DNA of 64,000 nucleotides. Origin: Bradyrhizobium algeriense (GTDB lineage: Bacteria; Pseudomonadota; Alphaproteobacteria; Rhizobiales; Xanthobacteraceae). Both the position numbers and the translations under genes were made by a program. The DNA is taken from NCBI RefSeq assembly GCF_036924595.1, contig NZ_JAZHRV010000001.1:930001-994000 (forward strand), written 5' to 3'. This document shows, in pieces, positions 13,993 to 24,504 of the stretch (positions are counted from its first letter, which is position 1; each line of letters begins with the position of its first letter). The notes under the pieces were generated by a model, which was given only the letters and a program-made list of their open reading frames with translations, was not told where the DNA came from and searched no databases.

Positions 13993-14030
13993 CCTTTTGA
14001 GCGTTCGGCACTAGTCTGGAGATGTAGACT

Positions 14031-14212
14031 GGTCGCACGGGCCGATCCGCCGGGAGCCGCCTGACCCATCTGTGCCATGAGCACCTGCGTAGGACCCGCG
14101 CCCCGGTGGAGCGGCTGCGATCGAGATCCACTAGGAGGTTTGCGCCAAGAGCGCCAGTACAGGGATCGATCGGGATCGCAGTGGCCCGCTTCGCAAGCGA
14201 GGAGGTCGAGCA
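14031..14212 (+). ncRNA. Candidate bridge RNA in the IS110 leader
   Basis: IS110-group elements such as IS621 encode a roughly 170-nt bridge RNA in the noncoding left end, and this 182-bp leader is in the right place. It contains a stem CTGCGATC (14115-14122) / GATCGCAG (14174-14181) enclosing a loop. That loop includes CTAGGAGGT (14131-14139), which is identical to the nine bases right of the element (15661-15669). The match is what a target-binding loop would show. The RNA itself is not demonstrated, and its limits are approximate. Confidence 0.4.
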
Positions 14213-15472
14213 ATGGTCGAGGATGTGCATTGGTTTGTCGGGATCGACTGGGCAACGCAGAACCATCGCGTTTGCCTGTTGGATGCCGAAGGAAGACGCG
14301 TGGGCGAGCGGGAGTTCGTCCATGGCGGAGCCGGCTTGACGGAGCTGCGAGACTGGCTGCTTGAGAAGACCAAGGCCGCGCCGGGGCGGATCGCCGTCGC
14401 GATCGAGATGCCGCACGGTCCCGTGGTGGAGATGCTGCTCGAGCACGGGTTTACGGTCTTTGCCATCAATCCCAAGCAACTCGATCGCTTCCGTGATCGC
14501 TTCACGGTCGCAGGCGCCAAGGATGACAGCCGTGACGCTCTTGTCCTCGGCGACTCGTTGCGCACCGATCGGAAAGCCTTCCGGCAGCTTGCCACCGACG
14601 ATCCGACGGTGATCGAACTGCGCGAGTGGTCGCGCCTTATGGATGAACTGCTGCAGGAACGGACGCGTCTGGCCAATCGCCTGCGCCAGCAGCTATGGCG
14701 TTATTATCCGCAAGCGGCCGAACTGACCGACGATGTCGCAGATGATTGGTTCCTGGCGCTGTGGCAGAAGGTGCCGACCCCCGCTGCGGCCGCCAAGGTA
14801 TCGGAGAAGGCGATTGCGCGCATCCTCAAGGAGCATCGCATCCGCCGTCTCGACGCCACCACCGTGCTGCAGACCTTGCGCAAGGCGGCCTTGTTCGTCG
14901 CACCAGGTACCAGGGAGGCCGCGTGCGTCCATATCCGCAGTCTTGTGGCGCGCATGCACCTGATCAATCAGCAGATCAAGGAAGCCGGCGCCGCCCTGGA
15001 CGGCCTTTGCGACAGCCTCGCAGCACAGGATGAGGAGAACTCGTCGGGGCAGAGCCATGAGCAGTGTGACGTGGCAATCCTGCGCTCCTGGCCGGGAATC
15101 GGCAGGATTGTTCTCGCCACACTGCTCACCGAAGCAGCGCAACCGCTGCAGGCACGAGATTATCACGCCTTGCGTGCTCTGGCAGGGGTTGCTCCGGTAA
15201 CACGGCAAAGCGGCAAGCAACGCTTCGTGATCCGGCGCCTCGCCTGCAACAAGCGGCTGCAGACTGCGGTCCATCACTGGTCACGCGTCGCCATCCAGCG
15301 CGACGCAGCCGCTCGGCGACGCTACGACGCCTTGCGGCAGCGCGGCCATGGCCATGCGCGTGCTTTGCGTGGTGTGGCTGATCGCTTGCTTTCCGCCCTG
15401 TGCGCGACGCTCACCCACCGGACCCTGTATGAGGCAGACCAGAGGAGTGCTCAGACCGTCGCCACGCCGTAA
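14213..15472 (+). CDS. IS110-family DEDD transposase
   Basis: A 419-residue transposase. The N-terminal RuvC-like DEDD domain (Pfam DEDD_Tnp_IS110) starts with GIDWATQNHRV, which contains the first catalytic Asp. AIEMPHG (Glu) and AKDDSRDALVLGD (Asp pair) follow. The C-terminal Transposase_20 domain has LRSWPGIGRIVLATLL and ALAGVAPVTRQSGK. A typical SVAxRHxG-type serine region is replaced here by GVAPVTRQSGKQRF, as is common in the family. A GAGGAGG sits 6 bases before the ATG at 14213. It is full length with no frameshift, so the element may be active. Confidence 0.93.
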   Translation: MVEDVHWFVGIDWATQNHRVCLLDAEGRRVGEREFVHGGAGLTELRDWLLEKTKAAPGRIAVAIEMPHGPVVEMLLEHGFTVFAINPKQLDRFRDRFTVAGAKDDSRDALVLGDSLRTDRKAFRQLATDDPTVIELREWSRLMDELLQERTRLANRLRQQLWRYYPQAAELTDDVADDWFLALWQKVPTPAAAAKVSEKAIARILKEHRIRRLDATTVLQTLRKAALFVAPGTREAACVHIRSLVARMHLINQQIKEAGAALDGLCDSLAAQDEENSSGQSHEQCDVAILRSWPGIGRIVLATLLTEAAQPLQARDYHALRALAGVAPVTRQSGKQRFVIRRLACNKRLQTAVHHWSRVAIQRDAAARRRYDALRQRGHGHARALRGVADRLLSALCATLTHRTLYEADQRSAQTVATP

Positions 15473-15664
15473 AGCCTCATTCCTTTGTTCGGCCGCTTGC
15501 GACCATTCCTTCGTCCCGACCTGCCGAACCCAACAGCGCCGCGCACAGCCGCTGTCCAGGATGCCATCGGCACCGGCGTAGCCGGCGCGAAGCGTCCTGG
15601 ACGGCGGCGAGCACGGCGCTACGCTTGTCACCCAAAGAACGAAAGCCCCTTGACCAAGCCCTAG

Positions 15665-16130
15665 GAGGTCCTACGAATAACATACCTTCGCGATCTCGCG
15701 GCGCATTGCGCCCGAGGTTTGAATTTCTTTTGCCCCTCCTCGAAATCAGAGGGCGCAGGGAAGACCGGGTGCACGCTGCACCCGCGGTCTCATGTGCAAT
15801 TGCGCACAAGGAACGCGCACACGAGCATACAGGTACAGGCGGAGCATCCCGGCCTTCCCTGCGCAATGGCTTTACGGCTTACTTCGTGCTCTCCCCGGTG
15901 AACGGCTTTCTTGCCACCGTCGCCCCCAAGAAGCTTGTTTCTCGAGAACTTAACGCCAGCACCGCGGCGTCCGGACCACACGACTTCGCCGTACGCGTCG
16001 GGCGCCTACGTCTTGCGCGCCTCTCGCGTCCATCGCATCTCACTGCACGTTCGTGACGATCGCGAAGCGCCCCTCATCTGCCGTGAGACGGGCGGAGTTA
16101 TGCGGTTGATTTGGCCTGCGTGTTAAGCGC
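15665..16130. repeat. Dispersed Bradyrhizobium repeat with spurious reading frames
   Basis: Both forward frames carry peptide strings I recognise from many annotated 'hypothetical proteins' in Bradyrhizobium and relatives: LHPRSHVQ, RNAHTSIQVQAEH, LRNGFTAYFVLSP and DHTTSPYASGAYVLR. The same DNA is conserved in more than one frame, which points to a repeated DNA element and not a protein gene. It also holds a hairpin-forming stretch. I annotate no CDS here. Confidence 0.55.
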
Positions 16131-16240
16131 AATATTTTTGCGCGAGGGGCTGGACAGGTTTTAGGTGATTTGCCCGTCGTGTTGCTTTGTCGCAGGCACT
16201 TGAGCGAGATTGCCCTTGCGCGAGAGGCAAATCAGTCCGC

Positions 16241-16377
16241 AGAGCGCAGGGTGGGCAAAGGCGCGTTAGCGCCGTGCCCACCGACTCACGCTGTGCTCGT
16301 GATGGTGGGCACGCTTCCGCCTTCGCTCTTCGAGCGACGGCGAGACAAGTCCGCTTTGCCCAGCCTACGCTCTGCCC
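16241..16377. repeat. Palindromic dispersed repeat, family A, copy 1
   Basis: The left arm reads AGGGTGGGCAAAGGCGCGTT and the right arm CTTTGCCCAGCCTACGCTC, with inner arms GCCGTGCCCACC and GGTGGGCACGC. The same arms occur at 16866-16960 and 30362-30452. This copy carries about 40 extra bases in its right half. Confidence 0.8.
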
Positions 16378-16380
16378 GAC

Positions 16381-16665
16381 CTAGCTGTGCGCGGGAATGT
16401 CGACGCCGTCAGTCGCATACTGCCGGATCTTGTTCCGCATCGTGCGCACCGAAAGTCCGAGCACGCGGGCTGCGTGGGTGCGATTGCCGTGGCAGCGCGC
16501 CAGCGTCTGCAGCACGAGCTCGCGCTCGATCGCCTCGACCGTGGAGCCGATCAGCATCGGCACGATCTGGTGGGGTGAAAGGCCTTGAGAATCCGACAGC
16601 GGAATCTCGGGCACGAGAACACAGTCCGCGCCAAGGTACAGGTCGCCAAGGTAGTCCCGGGGCAT
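16381..16665 (-). CDS. Stand-alone Fis-type DNA-binding protein (FlbD C-terminus-like)
   Basis: A 94-residue protein whose C-terminal half is a Fis/NtrC-type helix-turn-helix: TVEAIERELVLQTLARCHGN, then RTHAARVLGLSVRTMRNKI. This closely resembles the DNA-binding end of FlbD-type sigma-54 activators, which regulate flagellar genes in alphaproteobacteria. Here there is no receiver and no AAA+ domain. The start at 16665 is fixed by a GGGAGGT box five bases upstream. It might compete for FlbD sites or act as a small nucleoid-type regulator; both are guesses. It is bracketed by two copies of repeat family A. Confidence 0.75.
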   Translation of the reverse strand: MPRDYLGDLYLGADCVLVPEIPLSDSQGLSPHQIVPMLIGSTVEAIERELVLQTLARCHGNRTHAARVLGLSVRTMRNKIRQYATDGVDIPAHS

Positions 16666-16865
16666 CAACACCTCCCGATCAACGCTAGCTCCGAAACGCG
16701 GAGCTGAAGCATCAGGAATCAACGGCCCCCAAGCCGTAGACAGAGGGTGGGCGCGTTTGGTTAACGAAAGGTTAATCAGCACGTAAAGATTTTGACGGCG
16801 CGTTGTCACACCCGGAGGTATATGCTCAACAGCAGGCAGATGGACGTATCAGCGCGACGCAGACT

Positions 16866-16960
16866 GTAGGGTAGGCAAAGGCGCGAAGCGCCGTGCCCAC
16901 CAACTCACGTCGCGCTCATGATGGTGGGCACGCTGTCGCTTTGCCCACCCTACGCTCGGC
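16866..16960. repeat. Palindromic dispersed repeat, family A, copy 2
   Basis: The arms are GTAGGGTAGGCAAAGGCGCG and CTTTGCCCACCCTACGCTC, with inner arms GCCGTGCCCACCA and TGGTGGGCACGC. It ends four bases from the stop codon of the minus-strand NTF2-like gene, so it probably also acts as its transcript-end hairpin. Confidence 0.85.
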
Positions 16961-16964
16961 GCTC

Positions 16965-17354
16965 TCAGGCATAGGCCTCCGCGATCGCGGCAGTGTCGGT
17001 GTATTCCCGAAACCTGACGATCCGGCCGTCCCGCACCTCGTGAACCTGCACCCAGTCAACCGCCCATTCCTTGCCGTTGCACTTCACCAGGAAGCGCTCG
17101 CTGCCGAATACGGCGACCGTATCGCCATCGGCGATCATGCACGCCACCTTGAATTCCTTCACCTCGACTGTTGAGCTTATCCGCTCGAAGAACTCCCGGG
17201 CGCCGCCGCGGCCAATCCATCGTCCCGCGAACGGGATTTCTGGCGGGCCGGTGAATTCCCAAATCGCGTCATCGCCGATGACGTCAAGCGCAGCATTCAG
17301 ATCGCGCCGAGCCAGCGCGTCATAATGCGCCTTCACTGCATCGATGGCCGGCAT
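16965..17354 (-). CDS. NTF2-like / SnoaL-type protein
   Basis: A 129-residue single-domain protein of the cystatin-like NTF2 fold, related to ketosteroid isomerase and SnoaL. The N-terminal helix AIDAVKAHYDALARRDLNAAL, the strand DAIWEFTGP, FAGRWIGRGG and the C-terminal VRDGRIVRFREYTDTA are typical. The ATG at 17354 follows AAGGAAAG. Ligand and function cannot be told from sequence. A decayed second copy of its first 45 codons lies at 19090-19247, on the far side of the TIR module. Confidence 0.8.
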   Translation of the reverse strand: MPAIDAVKAHYDALARRDLNAALDVIGDDAIWEFTGPPEIPFAGRWIGRGGAREFFERISSTVEVKEFKVACMIADGDTVAVFGSERFLVKCNGKEWAVDWVQVHEVRDGRIVRFREYTDTAAIAEAYA

Positions 17355-17390
17355 TGTCTTTCCTTGGTCGGAGGAGGTGGGGGAAGCTCA

Positions 17391-17490
17391 GGGCCGTAGC
17401 CTGCATGAGCGTAACGATATGCGGCGGCGACTTGTACCCGGATGTTGCTACGCTCATCCAAGTCACGCTTGCTGTCGCTTTGCTCACCCT
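17391..17490. repeat. Dispersed repeat, family B, copy 1
   Basis: It begins GGCCGTAGCCTGCATGAGCG and has a partly complementary right arm (TTGCTACGCTCATCCAAGTC). The same sequence follows the NTF2-like remnant at 19281-19392, so repeat and gene start were duplicated together. Confidence 0.7.
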
Positions 17491-17519
17491 AGGGTTCTCA
17501 GTGAAAGCAGGAAAGGGCG

Positions 17520-17645
17520 ATGAAAAGTACCCAAAGGGCGGAAAGGGGCTTGACCACTCGGGAAAACCAAAACATCATGAGATCGCTCTTAGGTAGAAAT
17601 ATTGTATTATTTTCCTTCGTCAAACGTGTTCGAGATTTGACGTGA
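17520..17645 (+). CDS. Possible 41-residue leader ORF coupled to the TIR gene
   Basis: An ATG preceded by AGGAAAGGG opens a 41-codon frame (begins MKSTQRAERGLTTRENQN). Its stop overlaps the GTG start of the TIR gene as GTGA. The TIR gene has no good ribosome binding site of its own, so coupling through this frame would make sense. The peptide has no recognisable domain. It is weakly supported and could be chance. Confidence 0.25.
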   Translation: MKSTQRAERGLTTRENQNIMRSLLGRNIVLFSFVKRVRDLT

Positions 17646-18340
17646 ACAGGATCTTTCTCGCTTTTTCATTTCGGCCTGAAAACGATCGACTGGTCAGAGA
17701 TGTTGACCGAGTCATTCGTAGCCATGGGTTGGTGCCCGTGACGGGCGAGATCCTTGGTGGCCAGGGCTTGTCGCAGGAAGTCCAGGCACGCATTCGACAA
17801 TGCGATGCCCTTGTCGCGCTCTTCACACGGGAGTTGCAGATTCAAGGGCAGCAGGACACTTGGTTGCCGACGCAGTGGGTGTCTGACGAGTACGCGTCGG
17901 CGCGGGCAAGAAATCAACTGGCCATCGCCATTGTTGAGGATGGCGTTCAGACGAATGGCGCGTTTGCGCAGCATGAACGTATCAATCTCAATCGGCCGGC
18001 CGCGCCCGAAGCATTTATTCGCCTTTCCGAGACGCTCGGCTATTGGCGAGCAGAAGCCGGGCGCTCCCTTGAGATTCGGCTTCTGCCCCAGGAGGCCGCG
18101 ACCTTCGCATCCAGCGAAAACGCGCGATGTGAATATAGATTGGTCCCACCTAATGGAGGAGTGCCGAGCGAGTGGACGAAAGCGAGGCCGGCACGCAAGC
18201 CTGGCGGCGTTTTTCTGATTGTCCAAGGAGTCAAGACTGACCAATCCATCGAGGTCAAACTCCTGGAAGGGAATAATCCAAAATGGACTTCCCTGGAATC
18301 TCCGCAATGGGTTCACGTTGAACTCGCGAGCGTGCAATGA
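17642..18340 (+). CDS. TIR-domain protein with beta-rich C-terminal domain
   Basis: A 232-residue protein. Residues 1-100 fit a bacterial TIR domain: strand A is RIFLAFSF, helix B is LSQEVQARIRQ, strand C is CDALVALFTRE, then WVSDEYASARA, with E83 at the place of the NADase catalytic glutamate. The next strand is LAIAIVEDGV. Residues about 140-232 are a separate, predicted beta-rich domain (LEIRLLPQEAATF, then CEYRLVPPNGG, FLIVQGVKTDQS) that I do not recognise. The start is a GTG at 17642. The gene overlaps the pYEATS-TIR gene by four bases (ATGA), so the two proteins probably act as a pair. Bacterial TIR proteins often deplete NAD+ or make cyclic ADP-ribose signals in antiphage defence; that role is inferred here. 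Confidence 0.75.
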   Translation: MNRIFLAFSFRPENDRLVRDVDRVIRSHGLVPVTGEILGGQGLSQEVQARIRQCDALVALFTRELQIQGQQDTWLPTQWVSDEYASARARNQLAIAIVEDGVQTNGAFAQHERINLNRPAAPEAFIRLSETLGYWRAEAGRSLEIRLLPQEAATFASSENARCEYRLVPPNGGVPSEWTKARPARKPGGVFLIVQGVKTDQSIEVKLLEGNNPKWTSLESPQWVHVELASVQ

Positions 18341-19089
18341 CGATACGGATTGTACAGGACGCGAAACAGACGAACCCGACGCATTGGCGTTGGTCCGTCT
18401 GGCTCGATGCATCCGCGGAAGAACTCAACGGTGTCGAGGAGGTTGTCTGGAAACTTCATCCCAGCTTCTCGCCGCCTGAGGTGCGCGTGGGCAATCGATC
18501 GACCGCCTTCCGCCTGAAGAGCAGCGGATGGGGCGAATTCGAGATTCAGGCAGAAGTTCGCTTGAAGAATGGGGAGAAGGTTACCCTTCGTCACTGGCTT
18601 AGCTTCAAGCAGAGGGCGCCGAGAAAGGGCCGATCTTCTGCCGGTGAGGTAGAAGGTGGTTCGTCGGAGGCTGTGGCAATCGGCTCTCGTCAGCCCAAGG
18701 TATTCCTGTCCTATACGAGCTCGGATGCCCGACTGGCGGGCGCGTTGGTGGAGGAGCTCAAGCGCGAGCACAATATAGATGTATTTGTTGATGTTGATAT
18801 CCCAATTGGTCAAAATCTCAGGGACTGGGCCTCAGAAAAAATCAGGCTGAGCGATGCGGCCGTGTTTCTGCTTCCCAAGGAGGAATTTGCCCCGCTGAGT
18901 CACAGTTTTACAGGCTACGAACTGGGGCTGGCGCAGCAGACCGGCACGCCGATTATCCCGATCTTGCGATCGGAGACCGATGTGCCGGACCAGTTTAGGG
19001 AAACCAAGGCGATCCGGATATCTGGCAGCCAGCCTTCCGAACTGGAAGCACAAAGTATTGCGCGCTCCATCACCGATATTGTTCGCTGA
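18337..19089 (+). CDS. pYEATS-TIR two-domain protein
   Basis: A 250-residue protein. Residues about 15-92 match the prokaryotic YEATS pattern: WRWSVWLDA, VVWKLHPSFSPPEV and SGWGEFEIQAEV, echoing the eukaryotic LHPSF and GWGEF signatures. A charged linker (93-118) follows, then a TIR domain (119-213) with PKVFLSYTSSDARLAGALV, helix LRDWASEKIRLSDAAVFLL and GYELGLAQQ, where E195 is the putative catalytic glutamate. pYEATS domains are thought to be sensor or adaptor modules in bacterial conflict systems. Pairing one with a second TIR gene in a coupled operon suggests a sensor plus effector arrangement. Function is inferred from domains. No adjacent nuclease, STING or cyclase gene is seen. Confidence 0.78.
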   Translation: MTIRIVQDAKQTNPTHWRWSVWLDASAEELNGVEEVVWKLHPSFSPPEVRVGNRSTAFRLKSSGWGEFEIQAEVRLKNGEKVTLRHWLSFKQRAPRKGRSSAGEVEGGSSEAVAIGSRQPKVFLSYTSSDARLAGALVEELKREHNIDVFVDVDIPIGQNLRDWASEKIRLSDAAVFLLPKEEFAPLSHSFTGYELGLAQQTGTPIIPILRSETDVPDQFRETKAIRISGSQPSELEAQSIARSITDIVR

Positions 19090-19247
19090 CTTCTCCGGAC
19101 CACGCTTGCTGCACCGACCCGCAAACGAGATCGCCAGCGGGTCGGAAATTCCAGATCGCCGCATCGGCGATAACATTGAGCGCAGCGCTGAGGCCACGTC
19201 GCACCAGCGCGTCGTAGTGCGCCTTCACTGTGTCTATTGGCCGGCAT
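19090..19247 (-). pseudogene. Decayed 5' fragment of a second NTF2-like gene
   Basis: The minus strand encodes IDTVKAHYDALVRRGLSAAL and DAAIWNF, clearly related to the start of the intact NTF2-like protein (AIDAVKAHYDALARRD). One extra base just after the ATG at 19247 breaks the frame. Similarity stops at about 19090, right at the end of the pYEATS-TIR gene. The first 45 codons or so survive and the rest is missing. Confidence 0.75.
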
Positions 19248-19280
19248 TGTCCTTCCTTGATCGGAGGAGGGGGGAAGCTC

Positions 19281-19392
19281 ACGGCCGTAGCCCGCATGAA
19301 CGTAGTGATACGCGGGGGTGATTTGAACTCGGATATCGCTTCCGCCTACGCTCCTTAGAGCTACGGCGGACAAGTCGCTCATCCGTCCTACA
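19281..19392. repeat. Dispersed repeat, family B, copy 2
   Basis: It begins CGGCCGTAGCCCGCATGAAC and continues like the copy at 17391-17490, with scattered differences. It lies just upstream of the remnant gene, in the same relative place as copy 1. Confidence 0.65.
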
Positions 19393-19944
19393 CTAAGGTG
19401 CCTTCGTGTAGTTCAGTCTGTCGAATTCCGACGGCGGCGCAGCGCTCGCGGCGGCGGCCTGAACGGAGAAGGTGCTGTGCCCAACGGCAGTTTTCTGCGG
19501 TACGACGACGGAGCCCACCATCGTATACGAGTAACCGGCGTCTTCGGCCCAGCCCTTCGGCAGCAGATAGTAAACCTTGCCGGCCTCGACCGCGAACTTC
19601 GCGGGATGAGGTACCCCCGATATCGCCCGGGTCCATGCCTCATTGGGCGAGCCGACGCTGTGCGGACCGGGCGCCAGCTCGACAGCCGTATACTGCCCGG
19701 GCGGGAGCGACATCAGCGGCTTGTCGTCGACTTGAATGGGAAGCGCGAATACGCTCGTGTGGAAGGTGTACGGGCGCCCAATATACACCGTTGCGTAGCC
19801 GGCCTTGGGCGGGACCGGGACAAAAAGTCCGCCTGCCGCAACTGTTTGATTGTGAATTGACGAACAGGCGGTGAGGAAATGGAGCGCCAGGCCGACAGCA
19901 AGCAAACGCGCGGATAAAGCCGACGCAACATTGAGAAATTTCAC
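19393..19944 (-). CDS. Lipoprotein, DUF2846-like
   Basis: A 183-residue protein with a lipoprotein signal peptide: the hydrophobic core LLAVGLALHFL leads to the lipobox TACSS, so Cys would be lipidated and the protein anchored in the envelope. The body has the beta-sandwich pattern of DUF2846 proteins: YATVYIGRPYTF, IQVDDKPLMSLPPGQYTAVELAPGPH, and KVYYLLPKG. The tail is alanine rich. No operon partner is visible, and function is unknown. Confidence 0.72.
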   Translation of the reverse strand: MKFLNVASALSARLLAVGLALHFLTACSSIHNQTVAAGGLFVPVPPKAGYATVYIGRPYTFHTSVFALPIQVDDKPLMSLPPGQYTAVELAPGPHSVGSPNEAWTRAISGVPHPAKFAVEAGKVYYLLPKGWAEDAGYSYTMVGSVVVPQKTAVGHSTFSVQAAAASAAPPSEFDRLNYTKAP

Positions 19945-20247
19945 AAACGCCCCTCGTCCCCGAGAAACCGCACGGGGAGTGCGGCTCTACGGCCGGTATT
20001 TGCGCGAGCGGTGCCTGCAAGTCAAGGTAATCGGTGAGCGGACTTACACGCCTTGCAGTTGTTTGAAGGAAAGAGCGGCTAATCCAGATTAGCGACGTGC
20101 CCGCTGTCCTGCGGCTTTCAGCGCCGTGACACGCTCGATCTCGATCAGCATCATCGGATTGGGCAGACTTGAACGCCGGATGTCGCTGCGCTTACCCGGG
20201 CGACGCTTGCTTACACGCACGGATGCTATCAATTCGCCAATTCAAGA
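19945..20247. other. Intergenic region with a possible gene remnant
   Basis: No intact gene. The segment 20161-20225 resembles repeat family B (CCGGATGTCGCTGCGCTTAC). The segment 20089-20166 may be the end of a lost gene, listed separately. Confidence 0.5.
20089..20166 (-). pseudogene. Possible C-terminal remnant of a RidA-like gene
   Basis: The minus strand reads LPNPMMLIEIERVTALK followed by about eight residues and a stop. The LPNP..LIEIE..A pattern resembles the last strand of RidA/YjgF-family proteins. Everything upstream is replaced by a dispersed repeat. At 25 codons this is only a suggestion. Confidence 0.25.
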
Positions 20248-20829
20248 CTAGCTTGATGGATCAGTCTTGGATTCCTTGCCTCCCGAAACACGGACCGCCC
20301 TGGCCATTTCTTTCTCATAAATCCCGTCAGTGCAGTGTCCTGTCAAAAGGTCGAGTCTGAACGGCGCCCAGGCGTCGCTGACCGGCGTGTACGCTTCACC
20401 AAAAAGCTCCGTGTGGCGCACGTCGATATTGCGAAAACCGTCCCATGAAATTCGCGGGCTGCGCCATCCGGAATTGTCTGCTCTGACAGCCGTGAAGTCG
20501 GTGAATCCGCGAAATATGACGGACCCAAGCGAGGGAAGGGAAATAACCTCCTCGATGTCCCCACCCAAACTGTCGCGAACAGAGCGATTCTCCAGGTCGA
20601 CAACGCTGGCCTCGCCTCCCGCGACGACGATGACGTCAGTTCCGTTCGGGTGATCCAAGACCGCATTGCAAGCTATGCTGTCCCCAAAGAAGTTGCCTAC
20701 CCACGACTCCGATACTTTCGGGTAGAAGCGGACAACCAACCCTTCACGATGCTCGCGATCGCCATGGATACTGAAGGATATGGCTACCGGACCATACGGC
20801 GGTAGGCCGGGGAGGATTTCAAACCGCAT
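20248..20829 (-). CDS. Hypothetical protein, 193 residues
   Basis: An open frame starting MRFEILPGLPPYGPVAISF at the ATG at 20829. An earlier in-frame ATG at 20883 is possible but adds an unconvincing arginine-rich leader. The composition is natural, with many aromatic residues. The middle shows repeated strand patterns (GTDVIVVAGGEASVVDLENR, then SVIFRGFTDFTAVRAD) that suggest a beta-propeller-like or beta-sheet protein. There is no signal peptide and no family I recognise. Lower G+C codon use than its thi neighbours is compatible with an accessory gene. Confidence 0.55.
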   Translation of the reverse strand: MRFEILPGLPPYGPVAISFSIHGDREHREGLVVRFYPKVSESWVGNFFGDSIACNAVLDHPNGTDVIVVAGGEASVVDLENRSVRDSLGGDIEEVISLPSLGSVIFRGFTDFTAVRADNSGWRSPRISWDGFRNIDVRHTELFGEAYTPVSDAWAPFRLDLLTGHCTDGIYEKEMARAVRVSGGKESKTDPSS

Positions 20830-20984
20830 AAGTCGTCGCTCGCGTTGAGCCGAGGGCAGGGACCATTTTGTGTGAGAAGGCAAGAGCCCGCAGCTTTTAG
20901 TTGCTCAATGATTAGTTTTTACCCAGTTGCGTTGCAACAGCTAGAACGACGGCGTTCACGGACGCGAGGGCTTAAGGCAGCGGA

Positions 20985-21007
20985 AAGCCGGGCCTTCGCC
21001 CGGCCTT
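20985..21007 (-). terminator. Terminator-like hairpin after thiC
   Basis: GCCGGGC/GCCCGGC with a four-base loop lies 60 bases beyond the thiC stop. On the minus strand it is followed by TTTCC, so the U tract is short. Confidence 0.45.
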
Positions 21008-21063
21008 CACTATCGGATGGATGCCCGAGTCAAGCCCGAGCATGACGAGGAGGGAGCGGTGCC

Positions 21064-23083
<2,020 letters not shown>

Positions 23084-23097
23084 GGTTTCGTAATCTT

Positions 23098-23706
23098 TCA
23101 CGCGGCCTCCGCGCTCTGGCCGAGCCATTGCCGCACCCTTGCATCGGGGTCGGCGTGCTGGGTGACATCGCTGACGACGGCGATCGAGTCGGCGCCGGCC
23201 GCAAAAATTTCGGCTGATTGCTCGAACTTGATGCCGCCGATCGCGACCAGCGGGATGTCGCCGATGCGCTTCTTCCACTCGGTGATCTTTGGAATGCCTT
23301 GCGGCGCGAAGCGCATGGATTTCAGCGTGGTCGGGAAAATCGGGCCGAGCGCGATATAGTCCGGCTTCGCTGCCAGCGCGATCGCCAGCTCTTCGTCGTC
23401 ATGGGTGGAGATGCCGAGCGTCAGTCCGGCTTTGCGGATTTCGCTGAGGTCGGCGTCCGCGAGATCTTCCTGGCCGAGATGCAGATGCTTTGCGCCGGCG
23501 ACGATCGCCGCGCGCCAGTAGTCGTTGACCACGAGCTTGGCCTCGGTGCCCTTGATGGCGTCGAGCGCGTCGGTCACGATCTGCAGCGCCTGGGATTCAT
23601 TGAGGTCCTTGGCGCGCAACTGAATGGTGCCGGCGCCGAGCAGCGCCAGCCGCGTCACCCAGGCGACGTTGTGAACCACGGGATAGAATTTATCAGGATA
23701 CGGCAT
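23098..23706 (-). CDS. thiE: Thiamin-phosphate synthase
   Basis: This enzyme couples HMP-pyrophosphate with thiazole phosphate to give thiamin phosphate. It is a 202-residue TIM barrel. QLRAKDLNE is the pyrophosphate-binding strand, [10 protein letters not shown] and LHLGQEDL follow, and IPLVAIGGI and [13 protein letters not shown] are the phosphate-binding ends. It overlaps the end of thiG by 14 bases, so translation is coupled. The QLR...ND pattern matches active enzymes. Confidence 0.93.
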
Positions 23707-24475
23707 GCCAGAACGGTGTCCCGATCACAGGGGTTGAGGGCGAGGCGAAGTCGCGGGCTTCCATCAGGCCGGCTTCGTAGGCGGTGCGGCCGGCTTCCAC
23801 GCCGAGGCGGAAGGCGGTGGCCATCGCAACGGGATCGGCGGCTTTTGCGATCGCGGTATTGAGCAGCACGGCGTCGTAGCCGAGTTCGAGGGCGTGAGCC
23901 GCATGCGACGGTGCGCCGAGGCCGGCGTCGACCACCAGCGTGATGTCGGGCAGGCGCTCGCGCATCAGTTTCAACGCGTCGCGGTTGGTGACGCCTTTTG
24001 CACTTCCTATTGGCGCGGCCCAGGGCATCACGACCTTGCACCCCGCATCGACCAACCGCATCGCGACCGAAAGGTCTTCGGTGCAGTAGGGGAATACTTC
24101 AAAACCGTCCTTGATCAGGATGGCGGCGGCTTCGACCAGGCCAACCACGTCGGGCTGCAGCGTGTCGTTGTCGGCAATCACCTCCAGCTTGATCCAGGGC
24201 GTGGAGAACAATTCACGCGCCAGTTTTGCCGTGGTCACCGCCTCGCGCACGCTGCGGCAGCCGGCGGTGTTCGGCAGGACCGTGACATCAAGCTCGCGGA
24301 TCAGCGACCAGAACGCGTCGCCCGTCTTGCCGCCAGCGGCCTCGCGCCGCAGCGACACGGTGACGATGTTGGCCCCCGACGCGCGGATCGCGTCCTGCAT
24401 GATCGCCGGCGAGGGGTAGAGCGCGCTGCCGATCAGGAGGCGGGAGGAGAAGGTTTTGCCGTAGAAGTTCAGCAT
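23693..24475 (-). CDS. thiG: Thiazole synthase
   Basis: ThiG forms the thiazole ring from deoxyxylulose phosphate, dehydroglycine and ThiS thiocarboxylate. The 260-residue barrel has the Schiff-base lysine region [35 protein letters not shown] and [17 protein letters not shown]. Since dehydroglycine here would come from ThiO, the cluster follows the aerobic glycine-oxidase route. It is separated from thiS by a 187-bp gap filled with a palindromic repeat. Confidence 0.95.
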
Positions 24476-24504
24476 TGCGCGTCTCCGCGATTCCGGTTTG
24501 CTCC

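What the first reader, a model, noticed from the sequence alone, without database searches (positions are those of the whole stretch)
17642..19089. Coupled TIR / pYEATS-TIR gene pair, a candidate conflict or antiphage system
Two genes overlap by ATGA. The first is a TIR domain (putative catalytic E83) with an unrecognised beta-rich C-terminal domain. The second fuses a prokaryotic YEATS-like domain (LHPSF and GWGEF signatures) to a TIR domain (putative E195). Two TIR proteins in one operon, one with a reader-type domain, suggest a sensor and an effector, or a mixed TIR filament. pYEATS domains have been described in predicted conflict systems by comparative genomics, but I know of no experimental work on a pair like this. 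The region lies among mobile-DNA signs (IS110, repeats, duplicated flank).
Basis: partly seen in the sequence, partly recalled or inferred. Interest (0 to 1): 0.78.

Follow-up and report, generated by a model that had tools for sequence, protein, structure and literature searches.

The report
Paired TIR and YEATS-TIR conflict genes
Two overlapping bacterial genes encode a pair of TIR-fold proteins, one carrying a YEATS domain that keeps most of the residues a human relative uses to hold acetylated lysine, and the same gene pair recurs in distant bacteria, sometimes among predicted immune genes.

Summary
ORF1 (17642-18340) and ORF2 (18337-19089) overlap by ATGA. ORF1 is a TIR-like fold plus a conserved, unassigned beta-sandwich tail. 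ORF2 is pYEATS (Pfam, above cut-off) plus TIR. The two glutamates align and are conserved (E83 in 109 of 110 aligned rows; E195 is E in 36 and D in 2 of 38). Of eight YEATS2 residues reported to contact an acetyl-lysine peptide, six are identical in ORF2. In 11 of 11 full-length loci whose downstream DNA I read, from five phyla, the next gene encodes pYEATS; in one it lacks the second TIR. In 4 of 10 genomes a TPR-S gene lies within 9 kb, and patatin, SLATT, SIR2-like, STAND, caspase or TIR genes occur near some pairs. In Bradyrhizobium ORF1 is rare (2 of 195 genomes), lies near thiC with no such neighbour recognised, and is absent downstream of thiC in 12 of 12 relatives examined. Best reading: a conflict module in which pYEATS senses a ligand and licenses TIR NAD+ cleavage. 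Ligand, enzyme activity and antiphage effect are untested.

The parts
17642..18340 (+). ORF1, 232 aa, GTG start: TIR-like fold plus C-terminal beta-sandwich
   Evidence: model pLDDT 92.4; aligned with 110 other rows, fragments included
17642..18055 (+). ORF1 TIR-like domain, residues 1-138
   Evidence: TIR_2 23.2 bits, under cut-off 28; Foldseek SARM1 TIR 1.7e-5
17888..17890 (+). ORF1 E83, putative catalytic glutamate
   Evidence: E in 109 of 110 aligned rows of 111; aligned with ORF2 E195
18056..18337 (+). ORF1 C-terminal beta-sandwich, residues 139-232, no assigned family
   Evidence: strands; R166 and P149 in 110 of 110 aligned rows; no Pfam hit
18337..18340 (+). ATGA overlap of ORF1 and ORF2
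   Evidence: in the 11 loci the junction is an overlap or a gap of at most 9 nt
18337..19089 (+). ORF2, 250 aa: pYEATS plus TIR
18337..18618 (+). ORF2 pYEATS domain, residues 1-94; pocket residues H41, S43, F44, W65, G66, E67, F68
18619..18687 (+). ORF2 variable linker, residues 95-117
   Evidence: pLDDT under 50 at 93-116; 17-30% identity to L001 and L002
18688..19086 (+). ORF2 TIR domain, residues 118-250
18919..18921 (+). ORF2 E195, putative catalytic glutamate
   Evidence: 36 E, 2 D, 3 gaps in 41 rows
17218..17449 (.). left copy of a duplicated flank (start of a SnoaL-like gene and the DNA before it)
19112..19340 (.). right copy of the duplicated flank, truncated SnoaL-like gene

Best explanation
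The pair is a two-gene conflict (probably antiphage) module. The pYEATS domain of ORF2 uses its aromatic YEATS pocket to bind a ligand, most likely an acylated lysine on a protein. Binding lets ORF2 bring together or release ORF1, whose TIR domain then cleaves NAD+. The outcome is either NAD+ depletion or an NAD+-derived signal; where a TPR-S gene is present, TPR-S would read that signal and switch on a killer such as a patatin. Shown here: the domains, their conserved residues, the conserved gene pair and the neighbourhoods. Inferred: ligand, NAD+ cleavage, contact between the two proteins, and defence.
For: Pair conserved in 11 of 11 readable full-length loci over five phyla. E83 conserved in 109 of 110 aligned rows; pocket residues H41, F44, W65 and F68 in 41 of 41 rows, matching YEATS2 residues reported to hold acetyl-lysine (PMC5651844, passages; alignment). 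The two TIRs are homologous with glutamates aligned. A Nitrospira protein fuses an ORF1-type TIR to a canonical TIR. TPR-S lies near the pair in 4 of 10 genomes. Neighbours of some pairs include patatin, SLATT, SIR2-like, nSTAND1, caspase and other TIR genes. Patchy presence, absence downstream of thiC in 12 relatives, purifying selection (whole-gene dN/dS 0.07-0.25 for window against L001 and L002, rough because dS is near saturation; 0.19-0.30 between L001 and L002).
Against: No conflict gene among the six window neighbours scanned. In the own genome the three TPR-S matches are at least 2.7 Mb from the pair by either path. TPR-S is not specific: all 10 genomes have it, and 5 of 14 control genomes do (2 over the cut-off). 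No ORF1 match in plasmids, no ORF2 match in phages, none in viral contigs. ORF1 is below the Pfam TIR cut-off and its fold matches deoxyribosyltransferases equally well. Y313, the eighth YEATS2 contact, is not kept. pYEATS is less conserved than the second TIR within Bradyrhizobium. The DNA after thiC in 12 relatives does not look like a defence island by eye (one FRG gene, L040). No assay was possible.
Confidence: 0.45

Rival explanations
1. Messenger system: the TIR pair makes an NAD+-derived signal and pYEATS binds a nucleotide-like product or regulator, not acyl-lysine. TPR-S or a distant receptor triggers the killing.
For: TPR-S near the pair in 4 of 10 genomes; patatin or SLATT neighbours; a TPR-S plus patatin module elsewhere in the own genome.
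Against: No receptor gene recognised beside the pair in the three Bradyrhizobium loci (window genes scanned, the other two read by eye); pocket residues match acyl-lysine readers closely.
Confidence: 0.25
2. Toxin-antitoxin-like pair: ORF2 holds ORF1 inactive until a cue is bound, and the locus mainly maintains itself or acts as a stress switch.
For: Tight junction in the same gene order; a second TIR that is variable over long distances and could be an inhibitor.
Against: E195 is retained in 36 of 38 readable rows, which a pure inhibitor would not need.
Confidence: 0.15
3. Physiological acylation sensor: a regulator that reads protein acylation as a metabolic cue, with TIR domains as scaffolds, unrelated to defence.
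For: Stands near thiC among ordinary genes in Bradyrhizobium.
Against: ORF1 in 2 of 195 genomes of the genus, and conflict-type neighbours in distant genomes.
Confidence: 0.1

Closest known systems
pYEATS (PF20305) and TPR-S (PF20308) conflict components, predicted by Burroughs and Aravind 2020 (recalled; paper not held)
   Same: Same domains, with TIR; TPR-S near the pair in 4 of 10 genomes
   Different: The window pair has no TPR-S near it; whether that paper describes ORF1 and its tail could not be checked
Eukaryotic YEATS acyl-lysine readers (YEATS2, Taf14, AF9, ENL)
   Different: Bacterial, joined to TIR, ligand unknown; F44 for Y262, Y313 not kept
Thoeris ThsB and type III ThcB4 TIR proteins
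   Same: TIR domain in a small operon
   Different: Only weak partial matches; no ThsA-type effector among the genes scanned
TIR NADases SARM1, AbTir, SPARTA TIR-APAZ, Cat1
   Same: TIR fold; that the glutamate is the same one is recalled, not aligned here
   Different: Different sensor domains; activity here not shown

Membership tests
pYEATS / YEATS | Profile match above curated cut-off | tested here: met
   PF20305 75.4 vs 26.9 bits; PF03366 51.9 vs 22
pYEATS / YEATS | YEATS fold | tested here: met
pYEATS / YEATS | Aromatic acyl-lysine pocket residues (YEATS2 Y262 and W282) | tested here: met
   F44 and W65 in 41 of 41 rows; F replaces Y262; Y313 not kept, at the frayed end of the alignment
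pYEATS / YEATS | Binds acylated lysine | not testable with these tools
   needs a peptide binding assay
TIR domain (ORF2) | Profile above cut-off and fold | tested here: met
TIR domain (ORF1) | Profile above curated cut-off | tested here: not met
   23.2 vs 28 bits; some homologues do carry PF13676, e.g. P0002 and P0003
TIR domain (ORF1) | TIR fold | tested here: inconclusive
   SARM1 TIR top in Foldseek, deoxyribosyltransferases score as well by Z; profile aligns with the ORF2 TIR
TIR NADase | NAD+ cleavage | not testable with these tools
   needs an assay
Thoeris | ThsB-type or ThcB4 profile match | tested here: not met
   ThsB models at most 16.5 bits; ThcB4 22.2 vs cut-off 220
Thoeris | ThsA-type effector beside it | tested here: inconclusive
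   none among six window neighbours scanned; not all window genes scanned
TIR/TPR-S conflict system (predicted, recalled) | TPR-S gene beside the TIR genes | tested here: not met
   own genome: three matches, at least 2.7 Mb away; near the pair in 4 of 10 genomes searched

The most novel reading that the evidence does not exclude
A bacterial immune system that reads protein lysine acylation: pYEATS recognises acylated proteins that appear or change during infection and licenses a partner TIR enzyme to destroy NAD+, a bacterial counterpart of chromatin acyl readers turned into a death switch.
Probability: 0.25. Interest if true: 0.88.

Novelty: new variant of a known kind. Interest (0 to 1): 0.6.

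Why it matters
It gives a compact, testable two-protein module in which a YEATS domain with a nearly intact acyl-lysine pocket is coupled to TIR proteins. If confirmed, it would show what prokaryotic YEATS domains sense and add a protein-modification cue to the triggers of TIR immunity. The conserved C-terminal domain of ORF1 is a target for structural work.

Tried and rejected
Fusion of ORF1 and pYEATS: P0038 runs through both, but its junction reads in the ORF2 frame where relatives read in the ORF1 frame, so I take it for an indel or sequencing error, not a true fusion.

Homology between the ORF1 tail and YEATS: hhalign gave nothing (probability 0.2%). The tail gave no credible solved relative by sequence; designed TIM-barrel hits look spurious.

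Co-evolution by distances: ORF1 and ORF2 correlate (r 0.78, 15 pairs; 0.89-0.93 by domain, 14 pairs), but in a set of 10 mostly distant pairs r is 0.22 and P 0.11. The signal is mostly one split, so I do not use it. Two of eight shared-contig pairs (fragments), L001 and L002 were left out.

Mobile carriage: no ORF1 match in plasmids; one weak pYEATS match in a Stanieria plasmid; no ORF2 match in phages; none in viral contigs. ORF1 was not searched in the phage collection. Rfam: no match at 14000-24500. Promoter and terminator scans were at chance level. thiC flank as a defence hotspot: ORFs of 12 relatives listed, not convincing.

Row drops: A1 holds the window and 35 of 43 ORF1 homologues; A3 the window, 34 of 43 and five loci; A4 the window, 25 of 32 and five loci. 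In one search only the 7999 candidates sharing most words were scored. The genome search scored only part of its first-look candidates with the alignments (for example 14 of 66 and 7 of 62 in the own genome), so those tallies are lower bounds.

Full report
What is there. ORF1 (17642-18340, 232 aa, GTG start) and ORF2 (18337-19089, 250 aa) overlap by ATGA. The window lies at 930001-994000 of an 8,102,604-base single-contig genome. It is Bradyrhizobium: the closest ORF2 homologue, 94% identical, is named Bradyrhizobium sp. AZCC 1678, and a genome called 'same genus' (G046) has the contig length of Bradyrhizobium sp. AT1 (L002). ORF2 carries pYEATS, YEATS and TIR_2 above their Pfam cut-offs; ORF1 reaches only 23.2 of the 28 bits needed for TIR_2.

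Conserved residues. In an alignment of 111 ORF1 rows, E83 is E in 109 of 110 aligned rows; the two rows without it, P0040 (not E) and P0041 (gap), are fragments. W79 is 109 of 109, and in the tail P149 and R166 are 110 of 110. In 41 ORF2 rows H41, F44, G64, W65 and F68 are invariant, S43 is S in 20 and T in 21, G66 is 40 of 41, E67 39 of 41, and E195 is 36 E, 2 D and 3 gaps. [quoted passage not shown] The profile alignment places LHPSY and GWGEF of YEATS2 over LHPSF and GWGEF here. Six of the eight are identical, F44 replaces Y262, and Y313, which by counting falls on the last low-confidence columns, is not kept.

Conserved pair. Of nine loci found in named genome contigs, eight have the pair; the ninth, Nitrospira L009, has an ORF1-type TIR fused to a canonical TIR. 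The same Nitrospira genome has a true pair elsewhere (L027), and a genome of the window's order has an ORF1 homologue followed by a 100-aa pYEATS with no TIR (L013/L031). Counting the window, pYEATS directly follows ORF1 in 11 of 11 full-length members whose downstream DNA I read. Their records name Pseudomonadota, Chloroflexota, Planctomycetota, Desulfobacterota and Nitrospirota (phyla from the record titles; several are metagenome-assembled). The junction is ATGA in six of the eleven, TGATG in two, and a gap of 1, 3 or 9 nt in three. Eight contig lengths are shared between the two homologue lists (43 and 32 proteins), which fits linkage in metagenomes but was not checked by sequence.

Which domain is the core. 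Between the window and six distant loci the second TIR is lowest in identity in each (21-30%), against 22-34% for the ORF1 tail, 33-45% for pYEATS and 40-47% for TIR1. Within Bradyrhizobium the order differs: against L001 and L002, pYEATS is 56% and the second TIR 62-67%. With the TIR-less pair in L013 I still lean to TIR1 plus pYEATS as the core, but weakly.

Neighbours. TPR-S lies near the pair in 4 of 10 genomes: the only match of one genome, both of another, all three of a third, and the best of five in a fourth; a simple placement estimate gives 1.6e-3, 7e-6, 9e-8 and 1.2e-2. Distances were chosen after seeing the data, so these are rough. Against it: all 10 genomes and 5 of 14 controls have TPR-S matches, and in six of the ten it is not near the pair. 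Other neighbours: patatin, pentapeptide and TIR genes (L031); TPR-S-patatin, TIR-nSTAND1 and TIR-WD40-type genes (L032); SIR2-like, SLATT, TPR-S and TIR (L006); TPR-S (L004); TIR and nSTAND1-WD40 (L005), with a similar nSTAND1-like ORF by eye in L007; caspase and TIR (L008, a 4.2-kb contig). L003 shows none by eye, nor do L001 and L002 or the six window neighbours scanned.

Place in the genome. ORF1 is found in 2 of 195 Bradyrhizobium genomes and in 2 of 385 of the class, one of them a partial hit (E 2.8e-5) that I do not count as a member. pYEATS is in 14 of 195; twelve of these genomes showed no ORF1, and of five such proteins scanned two are FRG-pYEATS and none has a TIR match. pYEATS is in 2 of 398 genomes of the phylum. 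In the window, L001 and L002 the pair lies 2.0-2.6 kb from thiC. The pair is 69% identical in DNA where thiC is 89%. Synonymous divergence of the pair is 1.3-2.6 (near saturation) against about 0.4 for thiC. This argues for horizontal replacement or separate acquisition at one site. In 12 of 12 relatives examined the pair is missing downstream of thiC; further window flank was recognisable in 6 of these 12 (L036-L039, L041, L047), and in L037 the matching flanks are 190 bases apart.

Mechanism. I consider it most likely that pYEATS is the sensor and TIR1 the enzyme, with the second TIR as adaptor or second enzyme. Nothing here shows NAD+ cleavage, ligand binding, contact or phage protection. 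Literature searches in the held library, which lacks most subscription journals: 'pYEATS' and 'prokaryotic YEATS' gave no paper, nor did YEATS with Thoeris or TPR-S with TIR and defense. YEATS domain with antiphage gave one phage-therapy review (listing only). YEATS with TIR and conflict systems gave PMC7159879, where the passages show YEATS only as an author name. Wider searches I saw as listings, 20 of 70. That pYEATS and TPR-S were predicted as conflict sensors by Burroughs and Aravind in 2020 is recalled, not read; so the kind is known by prediction and I call this a variant.

Noticed in passing
L009 7998-9023: Nitrospira protein joining an ORF1-type TIR domain to a canonical TIR, next to another TIR gene.
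   Followed up: partly
L015 505-1746, L019 511-1752, L020 547-1752: Other Bradyrhizobium carry pYEATS behind an FRG domain (Pfam-scanned in L015 and L020, by eye in L019), a different architecture.
   Followed up: partly
L035 7656-10246 (own genome near 6.34 Mb): TPR-S gene overlapping a patatin-like phospholipase gene; a possible partner in trans.
   Followed up: partly
window 17218-17449 and 19112-19340: Diverged duplication of the start of a SnoaL-like gene flanks the pair.
   Followed up: yes
window 16857-19375 vs L037 3877-4068: The segment with the pair and the SnoaL-like gene is absent in a close relative, with flanks conserved.
   Followed up: yes
L040 4489-5286: An FRG-domain gene a few kb downstream of thiC in a relative lacking the pair.
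   Followed up: partly
L031 10634-10936: Standalone 100-aa pYEATS after an ORF1 homologue, without a TIR domain.
   Followed up: yes
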